64,000 nucleotides of DNA. It comes from Verrucomicrobia bacterium 12-59-8 (GTDB lineage Bacteria > Verrucomicrobiota > Verrucomicrobiae > Verrucomicrobiales > Verrucomicrobiaceae). The notes beneath the pieces are model-generated. The model was not told the DNA's origin, ran no database searches, and was given only the letters and a program-made list of their open reading frames with translations. Location of the stretch: NCBI GenBank assembly GCA_002279765.1, contig NCCR01000017.1, positions 11,118 through 75,117 on the forward strand, read 5' to 3'. The position numbers were made by a program, and so were the translations under genes. Positions within the stretch are counted from its first letter, which is position 1; every line of letters begins with the position of its first letter. Shown piece by piece: positions 17,299 through 20,916 of the stretch.

Positions 17299-17395
17299 GG
17301 CTCTGCTCTCACGAGCCGGGTGCTCCTTGGCTCACTTACCGCGCACCCCCATAGGAGCAAGGAGGCTTCGGTATCGGCTTTGGAAAGCCGAGCTA
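17299..17395. repeat. REP-like repeat unit ending in a perfect palindrome
   Basis: The right end carries TCGGCTTTGGAAAGCCGA (17374-17391), a perfect eight-base inverted repeat, followed by GCTAC, in which the minus-strand TAG stop of the H-NOX-linked kinase lies. The order of short blocks (TGCTCTC, GAGCCG, AGGAG, the palindrome) parallels 8025-8130, so both are probably copies of one dispersed element. Confidence 0.5.
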
Positions 17396-20362
17396 CTTCA
17401 GGCGTGCCATCTGCTCGCGGAGAGCGGGCGCGGCGGATTCGAATGCTTGCTTTAACTGCGCGACGAGCCCTGACTGGTTGGCGCGAAGGTTGTTTTCGGC
17501 AAGCTGTTCGAGTTCGCGACAGAGCGTGTGCAGATAGGTGAGGCCGAAAAGGGAGCTGCTGCCCTTCAGGGAGTGTGCAGTGCGGCGCAGGCTGGCTTGA
17601 TCCTCACCGACGACGAGTTTTTCGAGATCCAGAATGCGCTCCGGCGTGTCTTTGAGCCAGTTTTCGATGAGTTCAATGCTGTCTTCGACACTGAGTTCAT
17701 CCGCCAACTGCCGGATAGCGTCATGGGCTGCGGTTTCATCGTCCGGCGACCATGTCGGAACGTCGGTGTCATCTTTGCTCTCAGGGAGGACTTGGATGCG
17801 GTTCAGGGCTTCAATAAGCGCCCTGGCACGGAGCGGTTTGGAGACATAGTCATCCATGCCGGCCTCGAGGCAGCGTTCGCGCTCGCCTGCCATGACATTG
17901 GCGGTCATGGCGATGATGCGGCAGCGTGGGCGTTGCCAGGCTGTGCTGGCCTCCATCTTACGGATGGAGCGTGTGGCATCGTAGCCATCCATGCGCGGCA
18001 TGTGGCAGTCCATGAGCACGGCGTCATAAACACCGCTGGCAAAGCGATTCACAGCATCTTCGCCATCACGGGCGAATTCGGCGGGGTAACCGTGCTTTTC
18101 GAGCATCATCATGGCCATGCGGGCATTCACCTCGTTGTCTTCAACGACGAGGAGTCGCGGCTTGATCCCATCTGGTGCGCTGGCGGAAACGCTTTCGCCA
18201 CGGGAACCCTCTTCTTCCGTCAGCGGGAGTTCTTGGGGCAAAGCCTCGCGCAGAGGGAGGCGCAACCAGAAGCGTGATCCGGCATGATGCTCGCTTTCCA
18301 CGCCGATCTGGCCACCCATGAGTTCGACAAGGTTCTTGCATATGGCGAGGCCGAGTCCCGTACCGCCGAATCGACGTGTGGTGGAACTGTCCACCTGTGT
18401 GAATGCCTGAAAGAGCTGAGTTTGCTGTTCGGGCGACATGCCAATGCCGGTGTCCGTGACGCTCATTTCGATGCTCACGGGACCTGCGGGCGGGGATTCG
18501 AGGCGCTGGACATCGATGGTGATTTTGCCTTCATCGGTGAACTTGATGCCGTTGCCGACGAGGTTCATCAAAATCTGCCGCACGCGACCAGGATCGCCGA
18601 TGAGCGAGGGGGGCACATCCGGGGCGATGTTCACGACGAGGTCAACCCCGCGCGCGGCGGCCTTGTGATGCAGGAGATCGACGACACCACGTATGACAGC
18701 GTCGAGACGGAAGGCTTCCTCGACGAGATCGAGCTTGCGGGCCTCAATCTTGGAGAAGTCGAGAATGTCCTCGATAATCGTCATGAGTGCATCGCCGCTC
18801 TGGCGCACGGCATCCACCATCTCGCGCTGCTTTGGCTGCAATTCGGTGTCCAGCAGGAGGGAGGACATGCCGATGATGCCGTTCATCGGCGTTCGGATCT
18901 CATGGCTCATGGTGGCGAGAAAGTCGCTCTTCGCATGGCTGGCCGCCTCGGCCGCCTCCTTGGCCTTGACCAACTGAAGCTCTGTCGATTTGCGCTCAAT
19001 AAACTGCCCCATCTGATTGCCGATGCCGCTTAGGGCTTGAAGCAGGGCTTCTTCGGGATCTGTGAACTCGGTGCTGAAAATCTCGAAGACGCCGAGGATT
19101 TCCCCGCGCGCTATCACGGGAAACGCCAGGGCACTTTTCAGCCGACAGGCTCGCGCGGCCTGAACACGTGGACAGTCCGCACTTTCGGGCAACTCGCGAA
19201 GCCACTGGCTCTGCTGTGTCTGCAGCACCATGCCCGGCAGTCCCTGTCCTGAAGTGAAGCGGCTTTCCTGGCTTATCTGGACGAAGGATGAGACATCCTT
19301 GGTGGGATCATGCCACAGCTCGGCAAGACACAACTCTTGGAGGCCGGGGTCGAGCATCCACATGCTGCCCACAGTCCAACTAAGCTTTGTGCAGATCATC
19401 TGGATCACTTTGGCCACAGCCTCGCGCATCGAGTCGGCATCGGCCAGGATGCGGCTGGCGGAGTATTGCAGGGCGCGCCTTTGATCATCCCGCCGCCGCT
19501 TCGTCACATCTGTCTCGATGGCCATGAAATTCACCACTTCGCCAGCCGGGTCGAGGATAGGCTGCACTTCGAGCGCGATCCAGTATTTGTAGCCAGAGCG
19601 GTGGTAGTTAACGATTTCGGTGCTGAAGCCTCTCTTCTGCTTAAGCATGGTCGAGATGTAGGCAACGGTGGCAGGGTCTGTCTCCTGGCCTTGCAGAAAA
19701 GAGCCGGGTGTCTTGCCGATGACTTCTTTCATGGGCCATCCGGTGATACGGGTGAAGCCCTCGTTAACCCATTCGATGCGGCCCACTGCATCGGTTACCA
19801 CGACCGCATTGTCCGTGCGCGCAGCGACCAGCGCGAGCTTGCGCGAGTGCGTCTCCTGCTCGCGGAGCTGTGTGCGCTGCGCCTTGAGGCGCTGGTTGAG
19901 CTTTTGCAGATCATCGGCGGCGATGCGTTGGGTTTGCAGCACCTGGAGAAAGTCGATGGTCTGGTCATGGACGGCGAAGTCGCTCATCGTCAGCCCGCAA
20001 GCCTCCACCTGATCGGGATCGGTGAGCCAAGGGGAGCCGAGCATGACTCCGCGCGCCGGATCATCCAGGATGATCACCTGTCCACGCAGGACACGGTGAT
20101 TTTGCCGGTCGTCCAGCAGGAAGAGGTGGTCGCGGTGCTCACCAGCGAGCGAATGGCTGAACTGCCCCCGGGGGCGTATCGAGAAAAAGACATCCTGCAG
20201 TCGCGCCCCTGGCACGGCCTTTGGACACAGTTTGGGCAAAGACGGACCGACCTCCAGAATCACATCCTGATCATCCCAGACGAAGTAGAAGGGGAACGCG
20301 CGAAGAAACTCGCGCGTGGGCAGGCTGCTGATGACGCTGGATTTGTCGGGGCGGAGATTCAT
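17393..20362 (-). CDS. HNOBA-PAS-GAF hybrid histidine kinase with REC and Hpt domains
   Basis: Multi-step phosphorelay kinase of 989 residues, the likely output partner of the H-NOX gene just upstream. The ATG at 20362 (MNLRPDKSSVISS) overlaps the H-NOX TGA as ATGA. Domains in order: an HNOBA-like region (FPFYFVWDDQDVILEVGPSL; LRGQVIILDDPARGVMLGSP; GLTMSDFAVHDQTIDFLQVL) with a helical linker, about residues 15-170; PAS, about 175-290; GAF, about 305-455; HisKA with H487 in ATMSHEIRTPMNG; HATPase with DTGIGMS and GGTGLGLAI; REC with D785 in AVLMDCHMPRMDGY and the SKP lysine; Hpt with H930 in RTAHSLKGSSS. HNOBA is the domain that couples H-NOX to output in soluble guanylate cyclase. No membrane segment is present, so it is a cytoplasmic sensor complex. 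No effector gene with an output domain is adjacent. Confidence 0.92.
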   Translation of the reverse strand: MNLRPDKSSVISSLPTREFLRAFPFYFVWDDQDVILEVGPSLPKLCPKAVPGARLQDVFFSIRPRGQFSHSLAGEHRDHLFLLDDRQNHRVLRGQVIILDDPARGVMLGSPWLTDPDQVEACGLTMSDFAVHDQTIDFLQVLQTQRIAADDLQKLNQRLKAQRTQLREQETHSRKLALVAARTDNAVVVTDAVGRIEWVNEGFTRITGWPMKEVIGKTPGSFLQGQETDPATVAYISTMLKQKRGFSTEIVNYHRSGYKYWIALEVQPILDPAGEVVNFMAIETDVTKRRRDDQRRALQYSASRILADADSMREAVAKVIQMICTKLSWTVGSMWMLDPGLQELCLAELWHDPTKDVSSFVQISQESRFTSGQGLPGMVLQTQQSQWLRELPESADCPRVQAARACRLKSALAFPVIARGEILGVFEIFSTEFTDPEEALLQALSGIGNQMGQFIERKSTELQLVKAKEAAEAASHAKSDFLATMSHEIRTPMNGIIGMSSLLLDTELQPKQREMVDAVRQSGDALMTIIEDILDFSKIEARKLDLVEEAFRLDAVIRGVVDLLHHKAAARGVDLVVNIAPDVPPSLIGDPGRVRQILMNLVGNGIKFTDEGKITIDVQRLESPPAGPVSIEMSVTDTGIGMSPEQQTQLFQAFTQVDSSTTRRFGGTGLGLAICKNLVELMGGQIGVESEHHAGSRFWLRLPLREALPQELPLTEEEGSRGESVSASAPDGIKPRLLVVEDNEVNARMAMMMLEKHGYPAEFARDGEDAVNRFASGVYDAVLMDCHMPRMDGYDATRSIRKMEASTAWQRPRCRIIAMTANVMAGERERCLEAGMDDYVSKPLRARALIEALNRIQVLPESKDDTDVPTWSPDDETAAHDAIRQLADELSVEDSIELIENWLKDTPERILDLEKLVVGEDQASLRRTAHSLKGSSSLFGLTYLHTLCRELEQLAENNLRANQSGLVAQLKQAFESAAPALREQMARLK

Positions 20363-20916
20363 GCGGCAGCGGCACTCCAATGGACCTCAAACACATCATG
20401 ATCCGCTCCCTCAGACTTTGCCGCGACGAGAGTGACCATGGCCGGAGTGGAGTAGAGTTTCCCCAGACCCTGCACGAGACCCACCACGAAATCCGTCAGC
20501 CCCGAACGATGCGTGAAGTAGTGCAGGGTCAGCGAGCTTTCTCCAACGTCCGAGCACTCAAAACGCGGCGGCTGGAGCTTTGGATAGATCATCTGCACGC
20601 GGGTGTGGAAGTTCGGCAGATTAATAAGGAAGTCCTTCAGCGAAGCCCCGCCCGCCCGCATCATGGAGCCATAGCTCGTCGAGGCCGTCTGAAGCACCCA
20701 GTGCTCGCCAAACGCGATTAAAATTGAACTGGCTGAAGCCCCCAGCACCTCCGACGCCGCGCTGACGAGATCGTAGGTCATTTCATCCGGGTAGGCCTCA
20801 TTGCTGACAAACACTTCGACATCGACACCGGCCTTGAGCTTTATTGCTTCCCATTTGTCCTCCCCGAAACTGGTGACGACGAGTTCTTCGATGGCTTTGT
20901 TGACGAGTCCGTACAT
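20359..20916 (-). CDS. H-NOX heme-based NO/O2 sensor protein
   Basis: Stand-alone heme sensor of 185 residues. The N terminus MYGLVNKAIEELVVTSFGED and the block AYPDEMTYDLVSAASEVLG are characteristic of H-NOX. H104 in DFLINLPNFHTRV is the expected proximal heme ligand. The heme-propionate motif, normally Y-x-S-x-R, appears here as Y133-F-T135-H-R137, a conservative Ser-to-Thr change. The position aligned with the distal tyrosine of O2-binding H-NOX proteins appears to be D142, which favours NO rather than O2 sensing, though this alignment is by eye. It is coupled by ATGA to the kinase, the usual arrangement in which bound NO changes kinase activity. Confidence in the family is high. Confidence 0.93.
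   Translation of the reverse strand: MYGLVNKAIEELVVTSFGEDKWEAIKLKAGVDVEVFVSNEAYPDEMTYDLVSAASEVLGASASSILIAFGEHWVLQTASTSYGSMMRAGGASLKDFLINLPNFHTRVQMIYPKLQPPRFECSDVGESSLTLHYFTHRSGLTDFVVGLVQGLGKLYSTPAMVTLVAAKSEGADHDVFEVHWSAAAA

What the first reader, a model, noticed from the sequence alone, without database searches (positions are those of the whole stretch)
17393..20916. H-NOX coupled to an HNOBA-bearing hybrid kinase next to an exopolysaccharide locus
The sequence shows a stand-alone H-NOX with proximal H104 whose TGA overlaps the ATG of a kinase that begins with an HNOBA-like domain and ends with REC and Hpt. HNOBA is best known from eukaryotic guanylate cyclase, where it follows H-NOX in one chain; here the split occurs between two coupled genes. 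The polysaccharide genes begin 157 nt downstream in the same direction, so NO sensing may gate matrix production.
Basis: partly seen in the sequence, partly recalled or inferred. Interest (0 to 1): 0.85.

Follow-up and report, generated by a model that had tools for sequence, protein, structure and literature searches.

The report
NO-sensor kinase inside a polysaccharide operon
A bacterium that looks verrucomicrobial carries a heme protein that probably senses nitric oxide, coupled to a kinase bearing the same linker domain as the animal nitric-oxide receptor; this pairing is known from cyanobacteria, but in a number of relatives it stands directly in front of a sugar-polymer operon, which makes nitric-oxide control of the bacterial coat a testable idea.

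Summary
Observation confirmed. Window 20359-20916(-) is an H-NOX (PF07700, E 3.7e-48); its TGA overlaps the ATG (20362) of a 989-aa kinase HNOBA-PAS-GAF-HisKA-HATPase-REC-Hpt (PF07701, E 1.3e-17). The split is not new: nearest solved structures are Nostoc Alr2278 and a Nostoc-type H-NOXA histidine kinase, then sGC; 50 of 56 H-NOX loci fetched have HNOBA next door. Less expected is the polysaccharide link. One GT4 glycosyltransferase lies behind HNOBA kinases in 21 distinct loci, window included, 12 with a 4-nt overlap, often followed by PGT, hexapeptide-PGT2, STAS, RsbW/SpoIIE, CheY, PDE, FkbM, Wzx. Likely logic: NO, H-NOX, phosphorelay, partner switch, polysaccharide, resembling Vibrio fischeri hnoX-hahK/syp. 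Cautions: in the window RsbW/SpoIIE and CheY are remnants and PGT2 is split; a terminator-like site lies between kinase and GT4 (no excess over shuffles); 40 of 59 kinase frames lack GT4 downstream; four loci keep kinase and operon without adjacent H-NOX. NO binding and any effect on matrix are inferred.

The parts
20359..20916 (-). stand-alone H-NOX (HNOB), 185 aa; H104 proximal ligand, Y133-x-T135-x-R137 motif, F143 at the place of M144 of Alr2278
   Evidence: PF07700 E 3.7e-48; aligned to Alr2278 and sGC beta1; residues counted over relatives
20359..20362 (-). ATGA overlap: kinase ATG 20362-20360, H-NOX TGA 20361-20359
   Evidence: sequence
17393..20362 (-). hybrid histidine kinase, 989 aa from the ATG (ORF listed from TTG 20380)
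19823..20323 (-). HNOBA domain and signalling helix (residues 14-180)
   Evidence: PF07701 E 1.3e-17, best stretch residues 87-173, two stretches; own profile residues 14-180; PDB 2p04/2p08 E about 2e-9 and sGC beta1/alpha1
19499..19810 (-). PAS domain (residues 185-288)
   Evidence: PF13426
18995..19432 (-). GAF domain (residues 311-456)
   Evidence: PF13185
18740..18934 (-). HisKA (residues 477-541)
   Evidence: PF00512
18248..18598 (-). HATPase_c (residues 589-705)
   Evidence: PF02518
17804..18151 (-). receiver domain (residues 738-853)
   Evidence: PF00072
17435..17674 (-). Hpt domain (residues 897-976)
   Evidence: PF01627
15997..17235 (-). GT4 glycosyltransferase, first gene of the polysaccharide operon
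   Evidence: PF00534; found downstream of HNOBA kinases elsewhere
15174..16040 (-). bacterial sugar transferase (PGT)
   Evidence: PF02397 E 1.6e-66
14495..15169 (-). first part of the hexapeptide-PGT2 gene (weak NTP_transferase match under the cut-off); homology to the 434-aa gene of L007 covers 15169-14672
   Evidence: one-piece relative L007
13903..14733 (-). second part of that gene in another frame; homology covers 14676-13909
   Evidence: PF02397
13614..13949 (-). STAS-domain protein, DSSG motif (homology 13898-13617)
   Evidence: PF01740 E 3.6e-15; motif read from the sequence
13226..13596 (-). remnants of the RsbW-GAF-SpoIIE gene (pieces in different frames, about 120 of 587 residues)
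13081..13254 (-). remnant of the CheY-like receiver gene, C-terminal half only
11812..12996 (-). type I phosphodiesterase / nucleotide pyrophosphatase family protein
   Evidence: PF01663; synteny
11088..11807 (-). FkbM methyltransferase
   Evidence: PF05050; synteny
9378..10943 (-). Wzx-type flippase
   Evidence: PF13440/PF01943; synteny
1480..9474 (-). further glycosyltransferases (7960-9474, 7115-7963, 5838-7067, 2556-4535 with WecG, 1480-2814) and one ORF without a Pfam hit (4777-5841)

Best explanation
A nitric-oxide-responsive phosphorelay built into a polysaccharide operon. H-NOX binds NO on its heme and, as a separate subunit, docks on the HNOBA-PAS region of the co-translated hybrid kinase, changing kinase activity through the signalling helix. 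Phosphate passes HisKA, REC, Hpt and then, in intact relatives, to the operon's own CheY or STAS-REC protein. This sets the RsbW/SpoIIE partner switch on the STAS protein, which adjusts synthesis or assembly of the polysaccharide made by GT4, PGT, PGT2, Wzx and the others. In the window the sensor-kinase pair, GT4, PGT, STAS and Wzx look intact, but RsbW/SpoIIE and CheY are remnants and PGT2 is split, so here the relay must use receivers elsewhere or has lost its local output. Shown: domains, overlap, conserved gene order, decay. Inferred: NO binding, H-NOX/HNOBA contact, phosphate flow, EPS control and its sign.
For: H-NOX and HNOBA by Pfam and by PDB sequences: Alr2278 187-193 bits, sGC beta1 108-119 bits; HNOBA to 2p04/2p08 and both sGC subunits. 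H104 in 71 of 71 and F143 in 67 of 70 H-NOX rows with a residue there (74 distinct rows, fragments included). 50 of 56 H-NOX loci have HNOBA next door; in 68 genomes of one family 28 of 33 H-NOX places have HNOBA less than 800 nt downstream. GT4 downstream in 21 distinct loci, window included; gap -4 nt in 12 of 21. Close GT4 in 14 of 68 genomes; set beside, 10 of the 14 have HNOBA on the same contig. Order and domains. L010 and L013 carry STAS, RsbWU and CheY right behind the kinase without GT4 (STAS 71 and 41 nt away), which ties the switch to the kinase. Precedent: V. fischeri HnoX inhibits HahK, which promotes syp biofilm (passages); SypE, a receiver with serine kinase and phosphatase parts, sets the STAS protein SypA (passages).
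Against: The window lacks intact RsbW/SpoIIE and CheY and has a split PGT2. A terminator-like site on the operon's strand lies between kinase and GT4 (17279-17267); the scan found 3 such sites against 3.6 in shuffles, and no promoter-like site on this strand. 40 of 59 kinase frames with at least 1.5 kb downstream have no GT4; L020 has GT4 but none of the other operon genes in 6.6 kb. L077-L080 keep kinase and operon without adjacent H-NOX, and genomes G041 and G044 show no PF07700 match. G058's GT4 has no kinase in the 5.8 kb fetched before it, and G074's kinase has no Pfam HNOBA. L002 has H-NOX without HNOBA.
Confidence: 0.6

Rival explanations
1. H-NOX and kinase form an NO phosphorelay whose output lies elsewhere in the genome (for example a c-di-GMP enzyme or a transcription regulator); the EPS genes are neighbours only.
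For: 40 of 59 kinase frames with at least 1.5 kb downstream have no GT4; L008 and L052 are followed by isochorismatase and another kinase; the window's local receiver and switch genes are decayed; a terminator-like site lies before GT4; c-di-GMP outputs are listed for several H-NOX systems (review passages).
Against: 12 of 21 GT4 neighbours overlap the kinase by exactly 4 nt, and GT4-linked kinases lie in several parts of a quick tree of 73 HNOBA sequences, 22 of whose 70 forks are weak.
Confidence: 0.25
2. The HNOBA kinase senses something other than NO through H-NOX: HNOBA has its own ligand or redox cue and H-NOX is an optional partner.
For: L077-L080 keep HNOBA and EPS operon without adjacent H-NOX; G041 and G044 have no H-NOX match. 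HNOBA of L078 still scores 212 bits with my profile.
Against: 28 of 33 H-NOX places are paired; the four H-NOX-free loci form one clade, as expected of a single loss; genomes G054 and G066 have H-NOX elsewhere, and completeness of the genomes is not told.
Confidence: 0.1
3. In the window's own organism the operon is a decaying remnant with little function left.
For: RsbW/SpoIIE and CheY remnants and a split PGT2.
Against: H-NOX, the kinase domains, GT4, PGT, STAS, PDE, FkbM and Wzx are open and matched by Pfam. An assembly error could explain the PGT2 split, less easily the loss of over 1 kb of RsbW/SpoIIE.
Confidence: 0.15

Closest known systems
Nostoc H-NOX (Alr2278) and the Nostoc punctiforme H-NOXA signal-transduction histidine kinase (PDB 2p04/2p08)
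   Same: separate H-NOX from a histidine kinase operon, and HNOBA in a histidine kinase (passages)
   Different: the passages read do not place the cyanobacterial pair in a polysaccharide operon; the window kinase ends in REC-Hpt and its nearest relatives are Verrucomicrobiota
Animal soluble guanylate cyclase (sGC)
   Same: H-NOX and HNOBA (PAS) with sequence matches to beta1 and alpha1
   Different: one chain with a cyclase output in animals (recalled); two genes and a histidine kinase output here
Vibrio fischeri hnoX-hahK and the syp locus with SypE/SypA
   Same: H-NOX/hybrid kinase operon controlling a polysaccharide; STAS protein set by a receiver-linked serine kinase/phosphatase (passages)
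   Different: hnoX-hahK lies apart from syp (recalled); whether HahK has HNOBA was not tested here
Shewanella oneidensis HnoX-HnoK-HnoB
   Same: stand-alone H-NOX acting on a histidine kinase (review table)
   Different: output is a c-di-GMP phosphodiesterase; its sequences were not compared here

Membership tests
H-NOX / HNOB (PF07700) | profile match above the curated cut-off | tested here: met
   163.9 bits against 25.5
H-NOX / HNOB (PF07700) | proximal histidine and YxSxR heme motif | tested here: met
   H104, Y133, T135 (Thr for Ser; Ser in 45, Thr in 25 of 74 rows, 4 gaps), R137; the meaning of the motif is recalled
H-NOX / HNOB (PF07700) | ferrous heme that binds NO | not testable with these tools
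   needs protein spectra
HNOBA / H-NOXA (PF07701) | profile match above the curated cut-off | tested here: met
   64.5 bits against 23.4
HNOBA / H-NOXA (PF07701) | similarity to solved H-NOXA PAS domains | tested here: met
   2p04/2p08 E about 2e-9, full sGC subunits E 4e-8 to 3e-6, by sequence only
Split H-NOX/HNOBA histidine kinase pair (Nostoc type) | H-NOX gene directly followed by an HNOBA kinase gene | tested here: met
   ATGA overlap, HNOBA and HisKA/HATPase in the next gene
sGC | HNOBA chain ends in a class III cyclase | tested here: not met
   HisKA, HATPase, REC, Hpt instead
Syp-like polysaccharide control | STAS protein in the EPS locus | tested here: met
   window 13614-13949
Syp-like polysaccharide control | intact receiver-linked serine kinase/phosphatase for the STAS protein | tested here: not met
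   only remnants in the window; long matches in L005, L007, L021, L049 and others, domains checked by Pfam in L007 only
Syp-like polysaccharide control | NO changes polysaccharide through H-NOX and the kinase | not testable with these tools
   needs genetics and an NO donor

The most novel reading that the evidence does not exclude
Verrucomicrobiota carry an sGC-like split NO receptor whose kinase is translationally coupled to the polysaccharide operon it controls through a phosphorelay-driven RsbW/SpoIIE-STAS partner switch, all in one transcript; and in one clade H-NOX has been lost while HNOBA kinase and operon persist, so HNOBA can signal without an H-NOX.
Probability: 0.35. Interest if true: 0.65.

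Novelty: new variant of a known kind. Interest (0 to 1): 0.5.

Why it matters
If true, one operon would join an NO receptor of the sGC kind to a surface polysaccharide by a partner switch, in a phylum for which the listings show no title on H-NOX signalling. The H-NOX-free clade (L077-L080) is a natural deletion that lets one ask directly what HNOBA does without H-NOX. The conserved gene order also gives annotators a handle on a group of EPS loci.

Tried and rejected
Considered and rejected: chance HNOBA match (Pfam and PDB); O2-sensing H-NOX with a distal Tyr (F143 stands there; the role of that Tyr is recalled); H-NOX-HNOBA fusion (the H-NOX frames are 54-345 aa long, so no fused chain is seen in those 68 genomes); a c-di-GMP output as the rule (of 48 proteins one matches GGDEF and one EAL, perhaps the same; the GGDEF motif was seen in L050).

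Led nowhere: promoter and terminator scan; NCBIfam (no family for H-NOX; for the kinase the best 25 of 162 shown are all below their cut-offs); the window's own genome (none held); the 2003 HNOB/HNOBA paper and the 2008 H-NOXA structure paper (not held; their content is known to me from citing passages or recalled). No structure prediction or fold search was run.

Rows dropped or chosen before counts: the 48 proteins are the window plus 47 of the 50 downstream frames, chosen after my own profile had found HNOBA in them, so 48 of 48 is not a blind count. The three left out: L023 (broken frame) and L036 (short frame) have HNOBA by my profile, L002 has none. Of the other six of 56 loci, L003 (contig end) has it by my profile; L019 and L055 end inside H-NOX; L051, L054 and L056 are partial or divergent matches without HNOBA. 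My profile was built from these kinases and is circular; Pfam and PDB are not. In one search I left out one row (other half of a G031 gene) and two rows that match only the profile's end (G012, G020). Of the 5 unpaired H-NOX places two lie at contig ends (G063, G016:C63) and three do not (G004, G046:C107, G047:C84); 5 HNOBA places lacked H-NOX, one at a contig start (G058:C419). G046 and G047 look near-identical, so places are not all independent. One search sets aside 8 duplicate loci; its 59 frames count the broken L023 twice. L080's large gap arises because its kinase is in two frames; the second ends 4 nt into GT4. L052's H-NOX is in two pieces.
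Full report
WHAT IS THERE. On the minus strand lie a 185-aa H-NOX (20916-20359) and a hybrid kinase (20362-17393) whose ATG overlaps the H-NOX TGA. Pfam gives HNOB at E 3.7e-48 and, for the kinase, HNOBA at E 1.3e-17 with PAS, GAF, HisKA, HATPase_c, receiver and Hpt (ATG numbering). The kinase stop is 157 nt from a GT4 glycosyltransferase on the same strand, followed by a sugar transferase and a long cluster with a Wzx flippase and more glycosyltransferases. The nearest H-NOX relatives are in MAGs titled Verrucomicrobiaceae and Prosthecobacter (80-88% identity), so I take the window to be verrucomicrobial; its genome is not held.

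WHAT KIND OF H-NOX AND HNOBA. Among solved structures the window H-NOX is closest to Alr2278 (187-193 bits) and then sGC beta1 (108-119 bits); the other entries have 36 bits or fewer. The alignment puts H104 on H105 of Alr2278, Y133/T135/R137 on Y134/S136/R138 and F143 on M144. Over 74 distinct H-NOX rows (fragments included) H104 is kept in 71 of 71 with a residue there and F143 in 67 of 70. That this place holds Tyr in O2-binding H-NOX is recalled. [quoted passage not shown] E about 2e-9) and both sGC subunits. Passages of PMC2576301 say that the Nostoc H-NOX structure is from a histidine kinase operon and that the H-NOXA structure is of a Nostoc punctiforme histidine kinase; passages of PMC2904703 and PMC2828450 agree on the latter. 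So the split pair is a known arrangement.

HOW GENERAL. A scan of genome contigs with an alignment of 18 H-NOX proteins gave 56 loci, all titled MAG, mostly Verrucomicrobia, with some titled Acidobacteria, Planctomycetes, Flavobacteriia, Saprospiraceae and others. Of these 47 have PF07701 in the next gene (chosen) and 3 more by my profile: 50 of 56. L002 is a true exception; L019 and L055 are cut; L051, L054 and L056 are partial or divergent. In the family of G001, PF07700 is found in 26 of 68 genomes and PF07701 over its cut-off in 27 of 68; 28 of 33 H-NOX places have HNOBA less than 800 nt downstream.

THE POLYSACCHARIDE LINK. tblastn of window and relative genes against the fetched loci shows a recurring order: H-NOX, HNOBA kinase, GT4, PGT, hexapeptide-PGT2, STAS, RsbWU (HATPase_c_2-GAF-SpoIIE), CheY, PDE, FkbM, Wzx (domains checked by Pfam in L007 and partly L011). 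It is seen through to Wzx in L067 (= L005), L068 (= L007), L078 and L090 (the last without its 5' end), and without a FkbM match in L079 and L080; elsewhere contigs end or genes differ. L011, L012 and L061 match a STAS-REC protein at this place (Pfam for L011 only) and show no RsbWU match. L020 has GT4 alone. GT4 lies downstream on the same strand in 21 distinct loci, window included: gap -4 nt in 12, 57-193 nt in 4 (window 157), larger in 5 (in L001 a FIST gene and a kinase lie between). Of 59 kinase frames with at least 1.5 kb downstream, 14 have GT4 within 300 nt, 19 at any distance and 40 not at all, among them a branch of 1543-1773-codon frames such as L057-L060 and L073-L075. On a quick tree of 73 HNOBA sequences (22 of 70 inner forks weak) the GT4 label needs at least 9 changes, missing contig ends counted as absence: the link is old or recurrent and often absent. 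In the G001 family 14 of 68 genomes have a close GT4 at E 1e-60; set beside, 10 of these have it on the same contig as an HNOBA match, G043 shows a kinase tail cut by the contig start, G058 and G074 lack HNOBA beside it, G021 has fragments only.

HOW IT PROBABLY WORKS. In L010 and L013 STAS, RsbWU and CheY follow the kinase directly without GT4, which ties the partner switch to the kinase. In V. fischeri HnoX inhibits HahK, HahK promotes syp-dependent biofilm, and NO inhibits biofilm in an HnoX-dependent way (passages of PMC12369376); SypE, a response regulator with serine kinase and phosphatase outputs, sets the STAS protein SypA (passages of PMC4517449). By analogy I infer NO, H-NOX, HisKA, REC, Hpt, CheY or STAS-REC, RsbWU, STAS, polysaccharide. 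Every step after the anatomy is inference; the sign of the NO effect is unknown.

RESULTS AGAINST. In the window only about 120 of 587 residues of RsbWU can be found, in pieces and different frames; CheY keeps its C-terminal half; PGT2 is in two overlapping frames. A terminator-like site on the operon's strand lies at 17279-17267, between kinase and GT4; the scan found 3 such sites against 3.6 expected, and no promoter-like site on this strand. L077-L080 (G054, G066, G041, G044) have HNOBA kinase and operon but no H-NOX match beside them; G041 and G044 have no PF07700 match at all. L080's kinase is in two frames. L081 (G074) has a kinase with only a trace of HNOBA (12.9 bits with my profile; none in Pfam).

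NOVELTY. H-NOX, HNOBA and their split pairing are known. The listings show no title on H-NOX in Verrucomicrobia or on an H-NOX kinase inside a polysaccharide operon with a partner switch; one search listed 15 of 30 papers, most listed papers were not opened (neither, none), and the library holds open-licence papers only. I file it as a new variant of a known kind.

Noticed in passing
L001:11478-14908: Between the H-NOX kinase and the EPS genes, on the other strand, lie a FIST/FIST_C protein (domain pair of the NO sensor NosP, table) and a PAS hybrid kinase: a possible second NO sensor at the same operon.
   Followed up: partly
window 21338-23386: A second hybrid kinase (PAS-PAS-HisKA-HATPase-REC) is 73.5% identical in DNA over 1371 nt to the H-NOX kinase; the match runs 84 nt past its stop into the stretch that codes the Hpt of the first kinase, so it may have lost its Hpt.
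   Followed up: partly
window 21338-24143; L008, L052: Isochorismatase plus this second kinase stand upstream of H-NOX in the window but downstream of the H-NOX kinase in L008 and L052: a local rearrangement or a join of two loci.
   Followed up: partly
L077-L080: HNOBA kinase and EPS operon without an adjacent H-NOX, one clade.
   Followed up: partly
window 26957-33067 and 33134-54556: Giant open frames of 2036 and 7140 aa; the first has passenger-associated transport repeats (PF12951), the second was not searched.
   Followed up: no
L002:798-1355: An intact H-NOX with no HNOBA kinase downstream; no PF07701 match in its genome G004.
   Followed up: partly
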